DNA from: Nitriliruptoraceae bacterium
GTDB taxonomy: Bacteria > Actinomycetota > Nitriliruptoria > Nitriliruptorales > Nitriliruptoraceae
Direction: 5' to 3'
Length of the DNA: 38,580 nt
Assembly: GCA_007136095.1 (NCBI GenBank)
Contig: SLHP01000105.1
Coordinates: 1 to 38,580 of the forward strand
Within the stretch, counting starts at the first letter, position 1; every line of letters begins with the position of its first letter. Below the pieces are notes generated by a model. The model did not search any database. It was not told the origin of the DNA and saw only the letters and a list, made by a program, of their open reading frames with translations. This document shows, in pieces, positions 2,443 through 38,540 of the stretch. Position numbers and translations under genes: made by a program.

Positions 2443-3026
2443 CAACCAGCCGCCCGACGCAGGACCGCCCGAGCCTCGTGGCGGTCCTCGTCGGTCCAGC
2501 CCTCGCTGAGCTCCAGCACCTCGATGCCGTCGAGGGTGGAGGTGAACGCCTCCATCTGGCCCTCCTCGAGCAACCAGGACCGACCTGGCCGGTCCCGACG
2601 TTCGAGGGTTCTCACCGTCGGTTGGCACAGCAGTGCGACGCCGCCGACGCCCAACCGACCGATGGCCTCCCGCCACACCTCGGTATCGAGGTAGGCGTGT
2701 GACAGGACGAGGCTGAACGGACCGGCCGGCAACGGCTCGACGCCGAGCTCGATCCGACGGACGTCCAGCTCCACACCTGCGGCGTCCGCCCTGGCCCCTG
2801 CCCGGGCACAGGCGGTGTCCGAGACGTCGGTCAGGGTCACCTCGAAGCCGCGACGGGCGAGCCAGATCGCGTGGCGTCCAGCTCCGCCGGCGAGGTCCAG
2901 GGCCCGACCGCCGTCGGGGAGCAGGTCGGCTCGGTCGGTGAGGAACGCCGACGGCTCGCTCGGCGGTGGCCGCTCTCCGTACCGCCGGTTCCACCGTTCG
3001 CGCGGGTGCCGCGGGTCGTCAGCCAC
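2439..3026 (-). CDS. Class I SAM-dependent methyltransferase
   Basis: A soluble protein of about 195 residues. It has a Rossmann-type SAM-binding domain: motif I reads LDLAGGAGRHAIWLA (residues about 43-57), followed by the acidic end of beta-2 in VTLTDVS. The opening, RWNRRYGERPPPSEPSAFL, is typical of small methyltransferases of the thiopurine/tellurite-resistance (TehB-like) group, in which the W-x-x-R-Y segment precedes the cofactor site. The substrate is unknown. Three GTG codons lie in tandem at 3032, 3029 and 3026; the last is chosen because GAGG (3032-3035) is five bases before it. The gene is convergent with the helicase, sharing four bases at the stops, and divergent from glutaminase. 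The methyltransferase fold is secure, the TehB-like label only likely. Confidence 0.85.
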   Translation of the reverse strand: MADDPRHPRERWNRRYGERPPPSEPSAFLTDRADLLPDGGRALDLAGGAGRHAIWLARRGFEVTLTDVSDTACARAGARADAAGVELDVRRIELGVEPLPAGPFSLVLSHAYLDTEVWREAIGRLGVGGVALLCQPTVRTLERRDRPGRSWLLEEGQMEAFTSTLDGIEVLELSEGWTDEDRHEARAVLRRAAGC

Positions 3027-3126
3027 CACCACCTCGATGCTGTCGGAGTCCGGACGGTAGTCGTCGACGGCTCACGCCATCGGGACCGCGCCGCACGGAT
3101 CCGGCCGACGGACCAGGGTTGCGCCC

Positions 3127-3144
3127 GCCACACCCGGGTGTGGC
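3127..3144. promoter_or_regulatory. Perfect 18-bp palindrome upstream of glsA
   Basis: GCCACACCCGGGTGTGGC reads the same on both strands and ends 35 bases before the glutaminase start, where a promoter should lie. It has the size and symmetry of an operator for a dimeric repressor. It lies in the gap between the divergent methyltransferase and glsA, so it could act on both. It could also form a hairpin in a transcript. Confidence 0.5.
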
Positions 3145-3179
3145 CTGCGAGGATGGCCCCGCGACCCAGGAGCCCACGC

Positions 3180-4169
3180 ATGTCCATGACGACACCCGAC
3201 GGCAACGATGCCGTGCCCGGATCCGGCGCCAGCGACGGAGACCGGATCGACGCGGTCCTCAGGCAGGCTGCGGACATCGCCCGTCCAGCGGCGAAGGATG
3301 GGCACGTCGCCGACTACATACCGGCCCTCGCCGGCGCGAACCCCGACGGCTTCGCCATCGCCATGGTCGATCTCGATGGCACGGAACACCTGCACGGCGA
3401 CGTCGACGTGACGTTCCCGATCCAGAGCATCTCGAAGGTGTTCTCGCTGGTGCTGGCGATGCAGAAGGCCGATGCCTCCTCCAGCGTGCGTGACGAACTG
3501 TGGTCGCGTGTCGGACGCGAACCGTCGGGTGATCCGTTCAACTCGCTGGTGCAGCTCGAGCACGAACAGGGCATCCCCCGCAACCCGATGATCAACGCCG
3601 GCGCGCTGGTGATCGACGATGTGCTGCTCGATCACTGCGAGGATTCGAAGCGCTCGACGCTCGAGCTGCTGGAGTTGCTCGCCGGTGAGTCCCTGACGGT
3701 CGACCGGGACGTCTACGACTCGGAGCAGGGCTCCTCCACCCGCAACCGCGCGATGGCCAACCTGATGGCCTCGTTCGGCAACCTGCGCCACTCGGTCGAC
3801 GAGGTCATGGACCCGTACGTCTACGCCTGCGCCATCTCGATGAGCGCCCGGCAGCTGGCCCGCGCCGTCCGGTTCCTGGCCAACGACGGGATCGAGCCGG
3901 ACTCCGGAGAGCGGATACTGACGCCCCGGCACGCGAGGCGGGTCGCGGCGATCATGTTGACCTGTGGGACCTACGACGCGTCCGGCGAGTTCGCCTACAG
4001 CGTCGGACTGCCTTGCAAGAGCGGGGTCGCCGGGGGGATCGTCGGCGTGGTTCCCGGCCGGATGGGTATCTGCGTCTGGTCCCCACCGCTGGACGGCTCG
4101 GGGAACTCGCGGGCCGGCCGTATCGCGCTGCACGAGATCGCCGAACGCCTGGACCTGTCGGTGGTGTGA
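3180..4169 (+). CDS. glsA: Glutaminase
   Basis: Hydrolyses L-glutamine to glutamate and ammonia in the cytoplasm. The 329-residue protein belongs to the serine-dependent, beta-lactamase-fold glutaminase family and has its expected length (about 310-330). The catalytic S-x-x-K motif is seen in FPIQSISKVFSL, Ser83 and Lys86, and further family signatures include NPMINAGA and the C-terminal KSGVAGGI. The ATG at 3180 is chosen over an in-frame ATG at 3186 because AGGAG (3168-3172) lies seven bases upstream. Its roles in the family are nitrogen supply and acid resistance through released ammonia. The gene stands alone; a strong hairpin separates it from the convergent deaD gene. The identification is firm, the physiological role inferred. 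Confidence 0.94.
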   Translation: MSMTTPDGNDAVPGSGASDGDRIDAVLRQAADIARPAAKDGHVADYIPALAGANPDGFAIAMVDLDGTEHLHGDVDVTFPIQSISKVFSLVLAMQKADASSSVRDELWSRVGREPSGDPFNSLVQLEHEQGIPRNPMINAGALVIDDVLLDHCEDSKRSTLELLELLAGESLTVDRDVYDSEQGSSTRNRAMANLMASFGNLRHSVDEVMDPYVYACAISMSARQLARAVRFLANDGIEPDSGERILTPRHARRVAAIMLTCGTYDASGEFAYSVGLPCKSGVAGGIVGVVPGRMGICVWSPPLDGSGNSRAGRIALHEIAERLDLSVV

Positions 4170-16052: not shown

Positions 16053-16088
16053 ACGCGCAACGGTGTCATTCGCCGCGCACACCAGGTC

Positions 16089-16120
16089 GGGGCGGGACCG
16101 CGTGGTCGCGGTCCCGCCCC
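16089..16120. terminator. Strong bidirectional hairpin between the permease and katG
   Basis: GGGGCGGGACCGCG, loop TGGT, CGCGGTCCCGCCCC is a perfect 14-pair stem in the gap between convergent genes. It should stop transcription from both sides despite the lack of a T-run. Confidence 0.8.
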
Positions 16121-16169
16121 GGGTGGCGTGCCACCTCGACGTTGTCGAGGGTCGTTCGTGCGCGATCGC

Positions 16170-32096: not shown

Positions 32097-32421
32097 ACCG
32101 CTCCCGACACCCTCCGAACGGGCCCCAGGTAGGCACGTGGCTGGCCTTGCTCCTGTCCGAGAGGCGGCGAGACCTGCGATCCGCGACGACACACCTGCGT
32201 TCGCTCCGGTTCCACCGAAGGCAGTTCGAACGAGGTCGAGGCTCGCCACCTCGACGCGCACGCGGGCAGTCCGATCGCAAGGGACCCGACCGATCCCCGC
32301 CGAAAGGCCCCGGAAGTCCTGGGTTTCGGCCCTGTTCCGGCAGCGGAGGGTCGTGTTCGCTGAGTGTAGTATCGCGCATGATGTTGTAGGGAAACGACAC
32401 CGCGTGAAGGAAAGGCGCGCT
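32097..32421. other. Intergenic region before the PAS kinase
   Basis: The first 240 bases are GC-rich and show no gene. From 32360 to 32400 the composition becomes AT-richer (gtgtagtatcg, gatgttgtaggg), with TAGTAT (32367-32372) as a possible -10 for the kinase gene, 50 bases before its start. I see no matching -35. A weak repeat GTCGAG/CTCGAC is also present. The open frame here is continuous with the kinase but shows no domain. Confidence 0.35.
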
Positions 32422-33924
32422 GTGGACGTCGACCCTGATCAGTCTGTGCTCGAGGAACGTGATCGGCTCCAACTGCTTGTCGCCAACAGCACCGACATGC
32501 TGGCGCGGCACGCTCCCGATGGGAGCTACCGCTACGTCTCGCCCGCCTGCCGCGAGCTACTGGGCTATGAGCCGGACGAACTGGTGGGCCGCTCGGTGTA
32601 CGAGTTCATCCATGCCGACGATGTCGCCGCGGTCCAGGCTGCCCATGCGGAGGTGTTGGACGGCCCACGGCTGCGGGCGGCGGTGTACCGGATCCGTGAT
32701 CGGCATGGGCGCCACGTCTGGTTCGAGACGACCGGCCATTCGCTGCGCGATCCGGTCACGGGCGAGCTCGTGGAGATCCAGACCAGCTCCCGTGACGTGA
32801 GCTGGCGACAGCAGGTGGAGGCGCGACTGCGTGAGTCCGAGGAACGGTTCCGGCTGGCGATGGCTGACGCACCGATCGGCATGGCCCTGGTGGGCCTCGA
32901 CGGGCGGGCGGTCGAGGTCAACAAGCGGCTGTGCGAACTCCTCGATCGTCCACGCGAAGCGCTGCTCGACCGCGGCTTTCAGGAACTCACCCACCCTGAC
33001 TATCTCGACAACGACCTTGCCTACCTGGAGCAACTGCTGGCCGACGAGATCCCCCACTACGAGCTGGAGAAGCGCTATGTGCGTCCCTCAGGCGAGGTGG
33101 TCTCGGCGCTACTCCGCGTCTCCCTGCTGCGGGATGACGAAGGCGGCCCGCGCTACTTCATCGCACAGATCGTCGATATCACGGAACGTCAGCGGACCCT
33201 TGACGCCCTGGAGACAGCCAGCCACGAGTTGAAGCGCAGCAACGCCGCACTGCGCCGCTACGCCTCGGTGGTCGCTCACGACCTGCGCAGCCCACTTGCC
33301 ACCATCGGTGGGTACGTCGCTCTGTTCCGGGACCACTACGGGGGCCGGCTCGATGAGCAGGGAACGCGGTTGCTGCAGGTCACCGACCGCACCGTGCGCC
33401 AGATGTCCCAGACCATCGAAGGGCTGCTCGACCTGTCGCGGATGCAGAGCGGTGAGCCAGGCCAGGAGGATGTTGAACTCGGCCCGTTGGTGAAGGACGT
33501 GATCGAGACGATCCGCCCCCAGCTCGACACGGTCGATGCCGAGCTACGGGTCGGCACGCTCCCGCGTGTTCGTGGCGACGATGCGTTGCTACGGGTGGTC
33601 TTCCAGAACCTGCTCAGCAACGCGGTCCATCACCGGCATCCCGATCGCCGCCTCGAGGTGGTCATCGACGCGGAACACATCGCACCGTTCTGGCGGTTCA
33701 CGGTCGTCGACAACGGCCGTGGCTTCGATCCTGCAGACCGCGAAGTGCTGTTCGAGTCCTTCGCGCGAGGTCGCAACAGCGACCGGCCGGACGGATCAGG
33801 GATCGGGCTTTCGACCTGCCGGAGCGTCATCGAACATCATCGAGGAACCATCGAGGCGTACCCAGCTGAGCCCGGGGCCCGCTTCGAGTTCACCCTCCCG
33901 GCCCTGCCGGACCGGGAGCGCTGA
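32422..33924 (+). CDS. Cytoplasmic PAS-PAS sensor histidine kinase
   Basis: A 500-residue kinase without signal peptide or membrane helix, so it should sense an internal signal. PAS 1 spans about 12-130 (LQLLVANSTDMLARHAPDGSYRYVSPACRELLGYEPDEL), and PAS 2 about 140-255 (FRLAMADAPIGMALVGLDGRAVEVNKRLCELL), ending with its PAC segment. The HisKA box SVVAHDLRSPLATIGGYV has phospho-accepting His286. The ATPase domain has the N box QNLLSNAVHH, G1 VDNGRGF and G2 GSGIGLS. Start: GTG 32422, with GGAAAGG (32409-32415) six bases upstream; GTG 32404 in frame is the alternative. Its 3' end overlaps the response regulator gene on the opposite strand by 35 bases. HisKA usually pairs with OmpR- or CheY-type rather than NarL-type receivers, so partnership with the neighbour is not certain. 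Confidence 0.92.
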   Translation: MDVDPDQSVLEERDRLQLLVANSTDMLARHAPDGSYRYVSPACRELLGYEPDELVGRSVYEFIHADDVAAVQAAHAEVLDGPRLRAAVYRIRDRHGRHVWFETTGHSLRDPVTGELVEIQTSSRDVSWRQQVEARLRESEERFRLAMADAPIGMALVGLDGRAVEVNKRLCELLDRPREALLDRGFQELTHPDYLDNDLAYLEQLLADEIPHYELEKRYVRPSGEVVSALLRVSLLRDDEGGPRYFIAQIVDITERQRTLDALETASHELKRSNAALRRYASVVAHDLRSPLATIGGYVALFRDHYGGRLDEQGTRLLQVTDRTVRQMSQTIEGLLDLSRMQSGEPGQEDVELGPLVKDVIETIRPQLDTVDAELRVGTLPRVRGDDALLRVVFQNLLSNAVHHRHPDRRLEVVIDAEHIAPFWRFTVVDNGRGFDPADREVLFESFARGRNSDRPDGSGIGLSTCRSVIEHHRGTIEAYPAEPGARFEFTLPALPDRER

Positions 33925-34603
33925 TCCCGTCGGGACCGACACTGCACCGGATCTGCTCCTGCGCGCGCCGTTCCGAAAGCCGGGCGGACAGTGCAGCGGC
34001 TTCCGAGCGCCGCTCCATCTCGAGCTTCCCGAGGAGTCGTGAGCTGTAGTTCTTGACCGTGCGTTCGGTGAGGTAGAGGCGCTCGGCGATCTGACGGTTC
34101 GACAACCCCTGCCCCATCAGCTCGAACACCCGCCGTTCCTGACCCGTCAACTGCTCCAGTGCGGCCTCCTCGGCGGGCAGCGACGACAACTGCTCGAGCA
34201 GCTCCGACACGGCCTGGTCATCGAGTAGCCGTCTGCCCTGCCCCACCGCCGCGATCACCCCCAGGATGTCGGTCGCGCTGCTGTCTTTGCCCTCGTAGGC
34301 AGCCGCACCAGCCAGCGCTGCCGACAACATGGCTCCGGGTTCGGGGAACGAGGTCAAGAGCACACAAGCGGTCGCGGGATAGCGAGCGGTCACCTCCCGA
34401 CACAGCTGGATGCCGTCCCCGTCGGGCAGCACGACGTCGACGATGACGATGTCCGGCCGGCCCCGCTCGATGAGCTCGGACGCCTCGGCGACCGTCCGAC
34501 CCTCACCGATCACCACAAGACCACATTCGGACCGCTCGATGGCGGTCCGCAGGCCGGCGCGGACCACCTCGTGATCGTCCACCAAGACCACCGTGTGGGC
34601 CAC
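33890..34603 (-). CDS. NarL/DevR-type response regulator
   Basis: A 237-residue transcription regulator. The receiver domain (1-125) has acidic Asp9-Asp10, phospho-accepting Asp56 (VIVDVVLPDGDG), the Thr/Ser in LLTSF and Lys in EGKDSS. A linker leads to the LuxR-type helix-turn-helix (about 160-222): LTGQERRVFELMGQGLSNRQIAERLYLTERTVKNYSSRLLGKLEM, which is very close to the DevR/DosR pattern. The start GTG at 34603 follows GGAGGAG. It lies 49 bases behind the small HisKA_3-like gene, probably in one transcript, and its end overlaps the PAS kinase by 35 bases. It may bind the duplicated 15-mer in the divergent promoter region. Signal unknown. Confidence 0.93.
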   Translation of the reverse strand: MAHTVVLVDDHEVVRAGLRTAIERSECGLVVIGEGRTVAEASELIERGRPDIVIVDVVLPDGDGIQLCREVTARYPATACVLLTSFPEPGAMLSAALAGAAAYEGKDSSATDILGVIAAVGQGRRLLDDQAVSELLEQLSSLPAEEAALEQLTGQERRVFELMGQGLSNRQIAERLYLTERTVKNYSSRLLGKLEMERRSEAAALSARLSERRAQEQIRCSVGPDGISAPGPAGPGG

Positions 34604-34652: not shown

Positions 34653-34871
34653 TCACACAGGACGGCCCGACGCGCGACACCGTACCTGCCTGATGAGCCC
34701 GTCGACCTCGATCTCGAGCCGCTCGAGCTCTCGAGCGGCCGCCTCGTCCACGGCACTGATCTGAAGACTGCGCAGCCTCAACGCGACCGCGAACAACCCC
34801 TGTTGGATCGCGTCCAGCCCTTCGTCCAGGACTTCCCTGGGGACTGGCACCGCTTCCACTGCGATGTTCAT
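34653..34871 (-). CDS. Small HisKA_3-like dimerisation protein lacking the phospho-His
   Basis: A 72-residue protein starting at ATG 34871, with GAGGAG just upstream. The middle, DEGLDAIQQGLFAVALRLRSL, lines up with the H-box helix of DevS/NarX-type kinases (pattern DLHDGVIQRLFAVGLRLQSL), but the phospho-accepting His is Leu. The second half, ARELERLEIEVDGLIRQVR, matches the returning helix of the same two-helix domain, which is close to DxxIxEIR in the family. There is no ATPase domain. It is cotranscribed with a NarL/DevR-type regulator. Such a fragment could form a dimer and dock on the regulator or on a full kinase, as an inhibitor or scaffold; that is inference. Similarity is by eye and the protein is short. 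Confidence 0.65.
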   Translation of the reverse strand: MNIAVEAVPVPREVLDEGLDAIQQGLFAVALRLRSLQISAVDEAAARELERLEIEVDGLIRQVRCRASGRPV

Positions 34872-34924
34872 CTCGCTCCTCGCGTCGCAGAACGCCGAAG
34901 CATGTCCTCGGAGCACGCCGATGT

Positions 34925-35026
34925 CTAGGTACCTCGGTCACCGATCGCGTCGTCGGCCGAGCATCCCTCGAACGACCTGCCGGATCACGGAGCGGACCCG
35001 CCCATATCGACGACCGAGGTACCTAG
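34925..35026. promoter_or_regulatory. Divergent promoter region with two identical outward-facing 15-mers
   Basis: CTAGGTACCTCGGTC (34925-34939) and its exact complement GACCGAGGTACCTAG (35012-35026) are separated by 72 bases. Read in the direction of its own gene, each copy is GACCGAGGTACCTAG, ending 53 bases before the small HisKA_3-like gene on the left and 60 bases before the unknown gene on the right. Each copy has an eight-base palindrome AGGTACCT. They may be regulator sites or alternative-sigma promoter elements. Confidence 0.75.
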
Positions 35027-35086
35027 CCACGACCCGTCTCACCGGGTGCCCTGGGTGAGGTCACCGGATCACACCAGGAGACGACG

Positions 35087-35458
35087 ATGTGGCAACACGA
35101 TGAACCCCTCACCGCCGACGGCGCCTCCGCGCCGATCCAGACCCACCGGCACCAGGATGCCTCCGGGCACGTCGCCCTGCTCGCGGCCACGGCGTTGGGC
35201 TTCGCGTACGCACCCACGGCGGACAACGAGACACACACGCACAGGCTCGTAGCCCTCGCCGGTCCAGACCCCGAGTCCCTGACACGAGCGCAGACAGCGG
35301 TGCTGACGCTCGAGGTCGGCTCTGTGGATGCACGTACGGATGCCGCAGCGCTCCTGCGCAGGGCAACCCGAAACGTCGTCGGTCCCTGCGGTGTGGGGCC
35401 CTCAGGCGGTCGGGGCGCCGTCCGGGTCCGCACCGCGGCTACGGAGGTCCGAGCGTGA
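35087..35458 (+). CDS. Unknown protein, first gene of the sigma-factor operon
   Basis: A 123-residue soluble protein that I do not recognise. AGGAG lies six bases before the ATG at 35087, and the gene stands 60 bases after a 15-mer promoter element, so the start is well supported. The sequence has a His-rich N-terminal part (residues 4, 20, 22, 28) and ETHTHRLVAL in the middle, then LTRAQTAVLTLEVGSVDARTDAAALLRRATRN, probably helical, and a Gly/Arg/Val tail. Several His residues might bind a metal, but there is no Cys cluster. Its stop overlaps the next start in GTGA (35455-35458), so the two are probably translated together. A regulator of the downstream sigma factor is one idea. Confidence 0.7.
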   Translation: MWQHDEPLTADGASAPIQTHRHQDASGHVALLAATALGFAYAPTADNETHTHRLVALAGPDPESLTRAQTAVLTLEVGSVDARTDAAALLRRATRNVVGPCGVGPSGGRGAVRVRTAATEVRA

Positions 35459-36285
35459 CCGCACAACGGAACCGAACCGTCCGCAGTCCCGACCACCCTT
35501 CCGGTCGCATGACCCTCGCACGCAGCACGTCACCCACGACCGCAACCAGGTCCTCGCTCCGGTTCCGAGAGCAGCCAGCTGACCACGACGACCACGAAGA
35601 CTCAGACACGGTGCGAACAGAACCCACCAGGGGCCAGACACAGCATGGGCTCCAAGACGTCACCGGGACCCTGGAGCAAGCCGCGCCGACCACCGACACC
35701 CAAGCCCACCGTTCGGCACCCGCGCCACGGCGCCCTTCCCTGCCAGCACCGCTGGACCGCCCTGCACGACTCACCGACCTGTCAGCCACGGTGTGCCAGA
35801 TCCGTGGCCTGCAGCAGATTCATGCCGACGACGCAGCGTTGCAGGACCGGCTACGCCGGACCGCGACAGAACTGGAGTCGCTCATCAGTCACCTGCTGCG
35901 CGCCGACGGCGCTGGATCCCGTCCCGACACGCCGCCGCCCTCGAGCACGCCGCGCCAACGCGCTGCAGAGCACGCGTTCCTCACCTGGCTCGCACAACCC
36001 ACCAGCACCGACGAACTCACACTGGTTGATGGCGATGAACCTGAGCCGATGGCCTGGATCCTTGGCGAGCTCAGCCTGTCGACACGACTGCTACCTGCCG
36101 AGACGGCCGCCGGTCTCAGGCTGCCCGCCGGCACCACCATCGGTCACGCAGCGGCCGAGGTGCTGCTCGCGGTCAAGGATCCGGCCGGGCCACGGTGCCG
36201 CTCGTTCCGGGCCGCCGTGTTCTACCTGCGCGATCTCGACCATGACCACCTCGCCTGGCAAGGCGACGGGCAGGTCGACCGATGA
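35455..36285 (+). CDS. Unknown protein upstream of the sigma factor
   Basis: A 276-residue soluble protein without recognised family. GGAGG lies seven bases before the GTG at 35455. The first 105 residues are polar, rich in Thr, Asp, Arg and Pro, and probably disordered. Residues 105-150 (LTDLSATVCQIRGLQQIHADDAALQDRLRRTATELESLISHLLRA) look like a long helix or helical hairpin. After a Pro-rich linker, residues 165-265 form an ordered part with AFLTWLAQP, PMAWILGELSLSTRLLPAETAAGLRLPAGTTIG and SFRAAVFYLRDLD. The gene ends in ATGA overlapping the sigma factor start. Position suggests an anti-sigma or a co-regulator, though no known anti-sigma domain is seen. Confidence 0.72.
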   Translation: MTAQRNRTVRSPDHPSGRMTLARSTSPTTATRSSLRFREQPADHDDHEDSDTVRTEPTRGQTQHGLQDVTGTLEQAAPTTDTQAHRSAPAPRRPSLPAPLDRPARLTDLSATVCQIRGLQQIHADDAALQDRLRRTATELESLISHLLRADGAGSRPDTPPPSSTPRQRAAEHAFLTWLAQPTSTDELTLVDGDEPEPMAWILGELSLSTRLLPAETAAGLRLPAGTTIGHAAAEVLLAVKDPAGPRCRSFRAAVFYLRDLDHDHLAWQGDGQVDR

Positions 36286-37226
36286 CGCGCACCGTGGGAG
36301 TGACCACCGACCTGGTCCGGCAGTACCTCGACGAGGCCGGGCGCTATGACCTGCTGGACCGGGAACGCGAGGCCGATCTTTCGAAGCGCTACCGGGCGGG
36401 TGCGGCCGCCGATGACCTGCTGGACACCACGACACCGCCTCGCGCACGGGCCGCCCGGCTGCGGCGCATCAGCCGCGATGGTCAACGTGCCAAACAGACG
36501 ATGATCCAGGCGAACCTGCGTCTGGTGATCCCGCAGGCCCGCAGGTTCGCGGGACGGGACCTCGACTTCGTCGAGCTGATCCAGGAGGGCAACCTCGGGC
36601 TGCTGCGTGCGGTGGAGAAGTTCGACCACACCAAGGGCTACAAGTTCTCGACCTACGCCGTGTGGTGGATCCGCCAGGCCCTGCAACGCGGTGTCGCCGC
36701 CCACGCCCGCACCATCCGGATCCCCGGGCACGTCTGGGAGCTGGCCGGCAAACTCCGTGCCGCAGAGACCCAGCTGCGGCAACGCCACGGCATCGATCCG
36801 AGCGACGCGGAGGTCGCTGCGCAGGTCGGGCTGACCCCGGAACGGGCCCAGGAGATCCGCCTCGCCCTGCGTGAGCCCACCAGCCTGGATCAGCCCGTCG
36901 GCGAGGACGGCGACACCACGATCAGCGACCTGCTGGCTGACCTCGACGGCGAGGACCCGGCCGCAACGACAGCGCAGCAGGACACCGTCCGCCAGTTGCA
37001 AGCCGCGCTGTCGCGCCTCGACCCACGCGAACGCACAATCCTGACCCTACGGTTCGGACTCGACGGCAACGGCCCCCGAACCCTCGAGAACATCGGCGAC
37101 CAGATCGGGCTCACCCGCGAACGCATCCGCCAGATGCAGATCCGCGCATTCGCCAAGCTGCGTCAGAGCAACCGACTACGCGATCTGTCCCAGCAACCCT
37201 GGACCCAGGACACGGATGTCGCCTGA
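36282..37226 (+). CDS. Group-2 sigma-70 factor (SigB/HrdB-like)
   Basis: A 314-residue RNA polymerase sigma factor. Region 1.2 is TDLVRQYLDEAGRYDLLDREREADL (9-33); region 2 reads ANLRLVIPQARRFAGRDLDFVELIQEGNLGLLRAVEKFDHTKGYKFSTYAVWWIRQAL, with the -10-recognition helix, region 3 IRIPGHVWELAGKLRAAE, and region 4 LDPRERTILTLRFGLDGNGPRTLENIGDQIGLTRERIRQMQIRAFAKLR. The long acidic region 1.1 of the main sigma factor is missing, so it is a non-essential group-2 factor. The conserved -10 residues suggest promoters near the housekeeping type. Its ATG overlaps the previous stop (ATGA). The cyclopropane synthase gene follows 30 bases later. Stress or stationary-phase control of this operon is likely. 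Confidence 0.94.
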   Translation: MTRTVGVTTDLVRQYLDEAGRYDLLDREREADLSKRYRAGAAADDLLDTTTPPRARAARLRRISRDGQRAKQTMIQANLRLVIPQARRFAGRDLDFVELIQEGNLGLLRAVEKFDHTKGYKFSTYAVWWIRQALQRGVAAHARTIRIPGHVWELAGKLRAAETQLRQRHGIDPSDAEVAAQVGLTPERAQEIRLALREPTSLDQPVGEDGDTTISDLLADLDGEDPAATTAQQDTVRQLQAALSRLDPRERTILTLRFGLDGNGPRTLENIGDQIGLTRERIRQMQIRAFAKLRQSNRLRDLSQQPWTQDTDVA

Positions 37227-37256
37227 GCTCGGATGTTGCTGGGACCGGAGGATGTC

Positions 37257-38540
37257 ATGCTGCAAACGCTGCCCCGATCCCTTCGAACGGCAGGCGACGC
37301 CGCCGAGGTCGCCCGTCGGATGCACGACCGGCTCGCTCGGCATGGACTGGAGCTCCCGGTGCGCCTGTGGGACGGCTCGACGCTCGGGCCGGACCAGATG
37401 CCCTATCGGCTGGTGCTCCCTCACCCATGGTCCGTGCGCCAACTGCTGCCGGCCTCGGACCTGACCGCGGGGGATGTCTACGTCTCCGGGTATCTGGACA
37501 TCGAAGGGTCCCTGATCGACGCGCTCCACCACCTCCACGGAGTACGCAGCGCGACGGACGGAGGCATCCCGCCGCGGACCCGGGTGGCCATGACCCGCGA
37601 CCTGTGGTCGCTACCGGCCCCACCATCCTCCAACGACGATGGTGACGCCACCGCGATCCGCCACCATGACGACGGCGGCAACGACTTCTACCCCCTGATC
37701 CTCGACTACGGGCTTGTCTACTCGTGCGCGATCTTCGACGCCGATGATGCGGCAGCCCCCGCAGAGGACCGCTCGGCACTGACCCGAGCGCAGGTTCGCA
37801 AGCTCGACACCGTCTGCCGCAAGCTGCACCTGCAGCCCGGCGAACGGTTCCTCGACATCGGATGCGGCTGGGGTGCGTTGGCCCTGCATGCCGCGCGCCA
37901 CTACGGCGTCGAAGCCGTGGGCATCACACGGTCACCCGCCCAGGCAGAACTCGCACGAGAGTCCGTGGAGGCAGCGGGACTCGCCGAGCGGATCGAGATC
38001 CGGGTCGCCGACTACCGCGAGGTCACAGAGACCTTCGACGGCATCGCATCGCTCGGCATGGGGGAGCACGGCGGGCACCAGGCGCTGGGTGCCTACGTCG
38101 AGGTTCTGGTGCGTGCACTACGCCCCGGTGGGCGGTTGCTCAGCCAAGGCATCACCACTGGCCGACCCATCGAGGTCCGTGACCTCAGTCAGGCGAAGGC
38201 CACGTTCGTCGGGGCGAACGTGTTCCCGGGAGGGGCGCTGATCCCGGTCGAGGAGATGGTGCGGGTCCTGCATGCCGCTGGCCTCGAGACCCGCGACGTC
38301 GAACAGCTCCGTCCCCACTATGCCCTGACTCTGCGCCACTGGGTCGCGAACCTCGAAGCCGCATGGGACGAAGCCGTGGCCGAGGTCGGCGAACGAACCG
38401 CACGGATGTGGCGGGCCTGCATGTCCGGGTCCGTCATCGATTTCGAGACCGGCGCTCTCGGGGTCGTGCAGATCCTGGCCGTCACGCCCGATGCCAGGCT
38501 GCCACTCGGACGTGACTGGATGCGGCCGACCCGACCCTGA
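37257..38540 (+). CDS. cfa: Cyclopropane-fatty-acid-phospholipid synthase-like methyltransferase
   Basis: A 427-residue SAM-dependent enzyme that should add a methylene bridge or methyl group to unsaturated acyl chains of membrane phospholipids. The N-terminal part (1-140) resembles the lipid-binding domain of CFA synthases (DLTAGDVYVSGYLDIEGSLIDAL). Next come HHDDGGNDFYPLILDYGLVYSCAIF, corresponding to the family's substrate/SAM lid, the SAM motif LDIGCGWG (199-206), and SLGMGEHGG where family members have SxGMFEHVG, here with Gly for Phe and Gly for Val. The ATG at 37257 has GGAG (37247-37250) six bases before. It is last in the sigma-factor operon. In other bacteria cfa genes depend on general-stress sigma factors, which fits. 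Product (cyclopropane or methyl-branched) is open. Confidence 0.9.
   Translation: MLQTLPRSLRTAGDAAEVARRMHDRLARHGLELPVRLWDGSTLGPDQMPYRLVLPHPWSVRQLLPASDLTAGDVYVSGYLDIEGSLIDALHHLHGVRSATDGGIPPRTRVAMTRDLWSLPAPPSSNDDGDATAIRHHDDGGNDFYPLILDYGLVYSCAIFDADDAAAPAEDRSALTRAQVRKLDTVCRKLHLQPGERFLDIGCGWGALALHAARHYGVEAVGITRSPAQAELARESVEAAGLAERIEIRVADYREVTETFDGIASLGMGEHGGHQALGAYVEVLVRALRPGGRLLSQGITTGRPIEVRDLSQAKATFVGANVFPGGALIPVEEMVRVLHAAGLETRDVEQLRPHYALTLRHWVANLEAAWDEAVAEVGERTARMWRACMSGSVIDFETGALGVVQILAVTPDARLPLGRDWMRPTRP

What the first reader, a model, noticed from the sequence alone, without database searches (positions are those of the whole stretch)
34925..35026. Two identical outward-facing 15-mers at the head of both arms of a regulatory cluster
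GACCGAGGTACCTAG is present exactly once in front of each divergent unit, pointing outward, at 53 and 60 bases from the start codons. Chance cannot easily give a perfect 15-base match at mirrored positions. It implies that one regulator or sigma factor drives both the response-regulator arm and the sigma-factor/cyclopropane-synthase arm. The inner palindrome AGGTACCT suits a dimer such as the local DevR-like regulator.
Basis: partly seen in the sequence, partly recalled or inferred. Interest (0 to 1): 0.72.

Follow-up and report, generated by a model that had tools for sequence, protein, structure and literature searches.

The report
Paired DevR-type operators in divergent promoters
Two matching DNA switches stand back to back between two gene sets in a soda-lake actinobacterium; they are kept in all eight related genomes that carry the neighbouring response regulator, so that regulator very probably turns on both its own operon and the opposite one.

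Summary
GACCGAGGTACCTAG occurs exactly twice in the 3.06 Mb genome, only here, as an inverted pair 53 and 60 bases from two ATG codons. It is the core of a 20-bp box (consensus TCGGTGACCTAGGTRCCTAG) present as an inverted pair in all 8 Nitriliruptoraceae genomes that have the neighbouring response regulator (RR, 33890-34603); no pair was found in the 27 family genomes without it. Box-to-box distance varies (55-92 bp), but a -10-like hexamer lies at one fixed distance from the box in all 16 arms (T at +40 in 16/16). That puts the box centre near -42, a class II activator position. The box fits the M. tuberculosis DevR/DosR consensus at 10/14, and the RR's closest solved relative is DevR. Best reading: a self-contained divergon activated by its own DevR-type RR. 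The sigma factor and cyclopropane synthase are cargo of this genome's right arm, not the conserved core and not the likely reader. The left arm's first gene encodes a 72-aa HisKA_3 remnant that lost its phospho-His but kept the DxxxQ phosphatase motif, predicting built-in negative feedback. RR binding, transcription starts and phosphatase activity are inferred, not shown.

The parts
34925..34944 (-). Left operator, 20-bp box TCGGTGACCGAGGTACCTAG (contains the 15-mer 34925-34939)
   Evidence: exact match, conserved in 8/8 orthologous loci
35007..35026 (+). Right operator, 20-bp box TCGACGACCGAGGTACCTAG (contains the 15-mer 35012-35026)
   Evidence: exact match, conserved in 8/8 orthologous loci
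34899..34904 (-). Putative -10 hexamer CATGCT of the left promoter (A at -11, T at -7)
   Evidence: fixed position +35..+40 from the 15-mer in 8/8 left arms
35047..35052 (+). Putative -10 hexamer TGCCCT of the right promoter (T at -12, T at -7)
   Evidence: fixed position +35..+40 from the 15-mer in 8/8 right arms
34653..34871 (-). L72: 72-aa HisKA_3-type helical hairpin without phospho-His, DxxxQ kept; first gene of the left operon
   Evidence: HisKA_3 match in 8/8 orthologs, profile comparison E 4.5e-11, alignment with full kinases
33890..34603 (-). RR: DevR/NarL-type response regulator, proposed reader of both boxes
   Evidence: Pfam Response_reg + GerE; best PDB match DevR 3c3w, E 7.5e-52
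32137..33924 (+). PAS-PAS-HisKA-HATPase histidine kinase, convergent with the RR; start codon uncertain
   Evidence: Pfam; conserved next to the RR in all 8 loci
35087..35458 (+). R123: small protein of unknown family, first gene of the right operon
   Evidence: found in 7 of 8 loci; in G016 the contig ends first
35455..36285 (+). R276: protein of unknown family, overlaps R123 stop
   Evidence: also in G018 and in part in G002
36282..37226 (+). Sigma-70 family factor (RpoD/SigB-like), overlaps R276 stop
   Evidence: Pfam and NCBIfam; not found at the other orthologous loci
37233..38540 (+). Cyclopropane-fatty-acid synthase-like methyltransferase (alternative ATG at 37257)
   Evidence: Pfam CMAS, NCBIfam CfaB

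Best explanation
The two 15-mers are the cores of two operators for the DevR-type response regulator encoded in the left arm. Each 20-bp operator is centred about 42 bp upstream of its own transcription start and takes the place of a -35 element; a poor -10 hexamer lies at a fixed distance beyond it. When the convergent PAS histidine kinase (or another donor) phosphorylates the RR, the RR binds both boxes and recruits RNA polymerase outward in both directions. This raises its own operon (L72-RR) and the R123 operon, which in this genome continues into R276, a sigma factor and a cyclopropane synthase. L72, the first product of the left operon, keeps the HisKA_3 DxxxQ phosphatase motif but not the phospho-His, so it probably dephosphorylates or sequesters the RR and closes a negative loop. 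Shown by sequence: paired boxes, their conservation with the RR, the fixed -10 spacing, loss of His with DxxxQ kept. Inferred: RR binding, activation rather than repression, phosphatase activity, kinase-RR pairing.
For: Pair in 8/8 RR-bearing genomes and no pair in 27 family genomes without it. Only two sites in the genome, both at the RR locus. Invariant T at +40 in 16/16 arms, A+36 in 8/8 left arms, T+35 in 8/8 right arms; 0 of 20,000 circular-shift trials gave an invariant column. Box matches DevR core at 10/14, P 0.0135, same register in all arms; two listed (predicted) DosR sites align at 14/20 and 15/20 in one register. RR best matches DevR 3c3w. In M. tuberculosis the TSP-proximal DevR site overlaps -35 and DevR is autoregulated (PMC3029386). 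No sigma-70 consensus promoter in the region. L72 evidence: with PMC3510030 and PMC5231405.
Against: No binding, expression or start-site data. The DevR match is imperfect (10/14) and the box lies asymmetrically, with two overlapping dyads. The left box of G029 is weak. Fixed spacing fits an activator best but a repressor over -35 is not excluded. The window copy of L72 alone matches HisKA_3 only at E 0.019, and His loss does not prove phosphatase activity. The kinase is of HisKA type, an unusual though possible partner for a NarL-type RR.
Confidence: 0.72

Rival explanations
1. The boxes are real promoter-proximal operators, but another transcription factor reads them, for example the DosR paralog (~45% identical) found elsewhere in this and related genomes.
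For: The paralog has a similar DNA-binding domain and exists in most family genomes.
Against: Genomes with the paralog but without the local RR have no box pair; the paralog's own locus in this genome has no strong box (best 9.8 bits against 20-33 for true boxes).
Confidence: 0.12
2. The local RR binds the boxes but represses both promoters by covering -35, with relief on a signal.
For: The box overlaps the -35 position, where repressors also bind (geometry).
Against: Precisely fixed spacing to the -10 in 16 arms and the absence of any -35 consensus fit a class II activator; the closest characterised relative, DevR, activates (PMC3029386).
Confidence: 0.1
3. The 15-mers are recognition elements of the sigma factor encoded in the right arm, which autoregulates.
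For: A sigma factor is encoded in the same inferred operon.
Against: The boxes are conserved at loci where the sigma gene was not found; the factor is RpoD-like with regions 1.2-4, for which a 20-bp box about 20 bases before the -10 is not a known element.
Confidence: 0.03
4. The 102-bp segment is a small mobile element (MITE) or a chance inverted repeat.
For: Perfect 15-bp inverted ends about 100 bp apart.
Against: No other copy in the genome; same place in 8 loci with different internal lengths and sequences; none of 60 shuffles gives such a repeat.
Confidence: 0.01

Closest known systems
DevR/DosR operators and divergent promoters of M. tuberculosis (Dev boxes, e.g. tgs1-Rv3131)
   Same: DevR-type RR; 20-bp box with matching register; TSP-proximal box overlapping -35; divergent genes under one regulator; autoregulation (PMC3029386, PMC2275270).
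   Different: Box differs at 4 of 14 core positions; one box per promoter in mirror order rather than closely packed primary and secondary boxes; no regulon outside the locus; partner kinase is a HisKA PAS kinase.
OsdR of Streptomyces coelicolor
   Same: DevR-type RR of an actinobacterium with a palindromic box (PMC5069765).
   Different: Its box AGGGCCGATCGGCCCT matches ours no better than chance (7/16) and a larger regulon is predicted.
HisKA_3 DHp domain of NarX/DesK/DosS kinases and the CheZ-type DxxxQ phosphatase mechanism
   Same: L72 has the two-helix hairpin and the invariant DxxxQ motif.
   Different: L72 stands alone: Leu or Val in place of the phospho-His, no ATPase domain, no sensor domain.

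Membership tests
DevR/DosR-type autoregulated operator | DevR-family RR with receiver and GerE HTH at the locus | tested here: met
   Pfam; 3c3w E 7.5e-52 over residues 5-213
DevR/DosR-type autoregulated operator | Box matching TTSGGGACTWWAGTCCCSAA | tested here: inconclusive
   10/14 core positions, P 0.0135; 12-13/20 for the full box
DevR/DosR-type autoregulated operator | Proximal box overlaps the -35 position of the promoter | tested here: met
   fixed -10-like hexamer at +35..+40 in 16/16 arms, box centre about -42; the start sites themselves are not mapped
DevR/DosR-type autoregulated operator | Phospho-RR binds the box and activates | not testable with these tools
   needs EMSA, footprint and reporter work
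DevR/DosR regulon | Many target promoters over the genome | tested here: not met
   only the two boxes of this locus in the genome
HisKA_3 DHp domain (L72) | Sequence match and two-helix hairpin | tested here: met
   8/8 orthologs match HisKA_3, best 1.3e-6; profile comparison E 4.5e-11; model of two helices, pLDDT 83
HisKA_3 DHp domain (L72) | Phosphorylatable histidine and ATPase domain (working kinase) | tested here: not met
   Leu or Val at the His position in 8/8; ORF of only 60-72 aa in most
HisKA_3 DxxxQ phosphatase (L72) | DxxxQ motif | tested here: met
   D20xxxQ24 invariant in 8/8
HisKA_3 DxxxQ phosphatase (L72) | Dephosphorylates its RR | not testable with these tools
   needs a biochemical assay

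The most novel reading that the evidence does not exclude
The divergon is a new kind of autoregulated circuit: a decayed DosS-type kinase survives only as a stand-alone, His-less DHp hairpin (L72) that acts as a dedicated phosphatase of its DevR-type RR and is made from the same RR-activated promoter, so the RR limits itself, while an unrelated HisKA kinase supplies the phosphate and the opposite arm serves as a slot for changing cargo (here a sigma factor and a cyclopropane synthase).
Probability: 0.35. Interest if true: 0.75.

Novelty: new variant of a known kind. Interest (0 to 1): 0.55.

Why it matters
It shows by genome comparison alone that a bare inverted 15-mer is a two-promoter switch, and gives a DevR-type operator with a fixed promoter geometry in a lineage for which I found no experimental work on regulators. 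If L72 is a stand-alone phosphatase cut out of a kinase, it is a simple, testable case of a two-component system that lost its kinase but kept the off-switch.

Tried and rejected
Sigma-factor recognition of the 15-mer: rejected, because the sigma gene is not found at the orthologous loci and the geometry is wrong. Mobile-element ends or chance: rejected. Wider regulon in this genome: nothing above background. OsdR-type box: no better than chance. AGGT|ACCT as the only dyad: two overlapping dyads score alike, and the DevR register centres on ACCT|AGGT. Helical phasing of the two boxes: 7 of 8 near half-integral turns, but not significant once close relatives are pooled (Rayleigh P about 0.1). 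Fold searches of the L72 and R123 models: no significant match; a two-helix hairpin is too simple to be informative. L72 profile against PDB sequences: only coiled-coil noise. R123: no Pfam or NCBIfam family.

Full report
OBSERVATION. The 15-mer GACCGAGGTACCTAG is present exactly at 34925-34939 (-) and 35012-35026 (+), outward-facing, 53 and 60 bases from ATG codons at 34871 (-) and 35087 (+). The genome (3.06 Mb, 269 contigs, 92% complete) has no further copy with up to one mismatch. A longer pattern with three mismatches finds only these plus background at the rate of the reversed control. None of 60 dinucleotide-preserving shuffles of the window contains a 15-base inverted repeat within 150 bp.

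ORTHOLOGS. Eight genomes of the family (own G000; relatives G018, G002, G016, G022, G006, G019, G029) carry an ortholog of the local response regulator; the seven relatives are 62-89% identical. Named equivalents are Nitriliruptoraceae MAGs with CSSed16 contig names. Each has an inverted pair of related boxes at the same place, between the L72 start and the start of the right arm. Leave-one-out matrices, with the three closest relatives removed together where relevant, rank the two boxes first and second in the local region of all eight and in the whole fragment of seven; the left box of G029 is weak. A family-wide search of 35 genomes with up to two mismatches finds no pair in the 27 genomes without the regulator; single hits elsewhere are about as common as control hits. 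The reported 15-mer is the core of a conserved block TCGGTGACCTAGGTRCCTAG.

PROMOTER GEOMETRY. Box-to-box distance differs among species (start to start 87, 88, 88, 55, 67, 55, 55, 92), and the stretch between box and -10 drifts (5-79% pairwise identity). Yet counting from the first base of the 15-mer as 0, base +40 is T in 16 of 16 arms; in left arms +36 is always A, in right arms +35 is always T. This reads as a -10 hexamer at +35..+40, with T at -7 in both arms, A at -11 on the left and T at -12 on the right. A circular-shift null that moves the three close relatives together gave no invariant column in 20,000 trials. Taking +40 as -7 puts the DevR-register centre (between +4 and +5) at about -42, a class II activator position. 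Leaders of roughly 21 and 28 bases with AGGAG motifs follow (lengths inferred). No sigma-70 consensus promoter is found in the region, as expected if the promoters need an activator.

WHO READS IT. The RR has a receiver and a GerE HTH. Its best solved relative is DevR of M. tuberculosis, 3c3w, E = 7.5e-52, with the TVKNY stretch of the HTH identical. The box matches the DevR core GGGACTWWAGTCCC at 10/14 (P = 0.0135 against shuffles of the box consensus), in one register in the arms, and the 20-bp DevR window coincides with the conserved block. Of four additional DosR motif sites listed in PMC2275270 (predicted sites), two align in one shared register at 14/20 and 15/20 (P = 0.008 and 0.0007 before correction for eight tests). 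In M. tuberculosis the TSP-proximal DevR site overlaps -35, divergent genes share DevR sites, and DevR is autoregulated (PMC3029386). Together with the co-occurrence, this makes the local RR the likely reader. It is not shown.

WHAT IT CONTROLS. The conserved core of the locus is HK (convergent), RR, L72, boxes and R123; in G016 the contig ends before R123 could be checked. The sigma factor and cyclopropane synthase follow R123 and R276 with overlapping or near-touching stop/start codons in the window but were not found at the other loci, some of which are short contigs.

L72. The first gene of the left arm encodes 72 aa. All eight orthologs match Pfam HisKA_3 (best 1.3e-6; the window copy alone 0.019). 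Second-tier hits of its profile are DHp domains in long open frames, many on the same contigs as a DosR paralog. Profile comparison with these kinases gives 97% and E = 4.5e-11. The phospho-His of 'LHD' is Leu or Val in 8/8, while D20xxxQ24 is invariant. The model is a two-helix hairpin, pLDDT 83. pN/pS of 0.38-0.60 indicates a protein under moderate constraint. DxxxQ is required for phosphatase activity of the HisKA_3 kinase NarX, and its His is not essential for it (PMC3510030, PMC5231405). In G016, L72 and RR lie in one open frame. I infer that L72 is a free-standing RR phosphatase or RR-binding modulator that gives negative feedback. Searches of the held library found no described stand-alone HisKA_3 phosphatase; that library is incomplete.

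VERDICT. The finding is real, conserved and well explained as a DevR-type autoregulated divergon. It is a new variant of a known kind; the most novel element is the L72 remnant.

Noticed in passing
34653-34871 (-): L72 is a stand-alone HisKA_3 hairpin with the phospho-His replaced but the DxxxQ phosphatase motif invariant in 8 genomes; predicted response-regulator phosphatase.
   Followed up: yes
L148 (G016:C53) 2838-3881 (-): In G016 the L72 and RR frames are continuous without a stop, so the two could be made as one protein.
   Followed up: partly
35087-35458 (+); L224 (G022:C244): R123 belongs to an undescribed small four-helix family (model pLDDT 94) with paralogs in 12 of 37 genomes; one paralog in G022 lies just before a sigma factor related to the window's, so R123 may be tied to sigma factors.
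   Followed up: partly
34955-34985 (between the boxes): A block GAGCATCCCTCGAACGACCTGC between the boxes is identical in G000, G018 and G002 but absent where the boxes are closer together; no explanation.
   Followed up: no
32137-33924 (+): The kinase next to the NarL/DevR-type RR is a HisKA (PF00512) PAS kinase, convergent with the RR, rather than the HisKA_3 type that usually pairs with such regulators.
   Followed up: partly
16088-16121: A second exact 15-base inverted repeat in the window (CGGGGCGGGACCGCG, 4-base loop), a likely hairpin.
   Followed up: no
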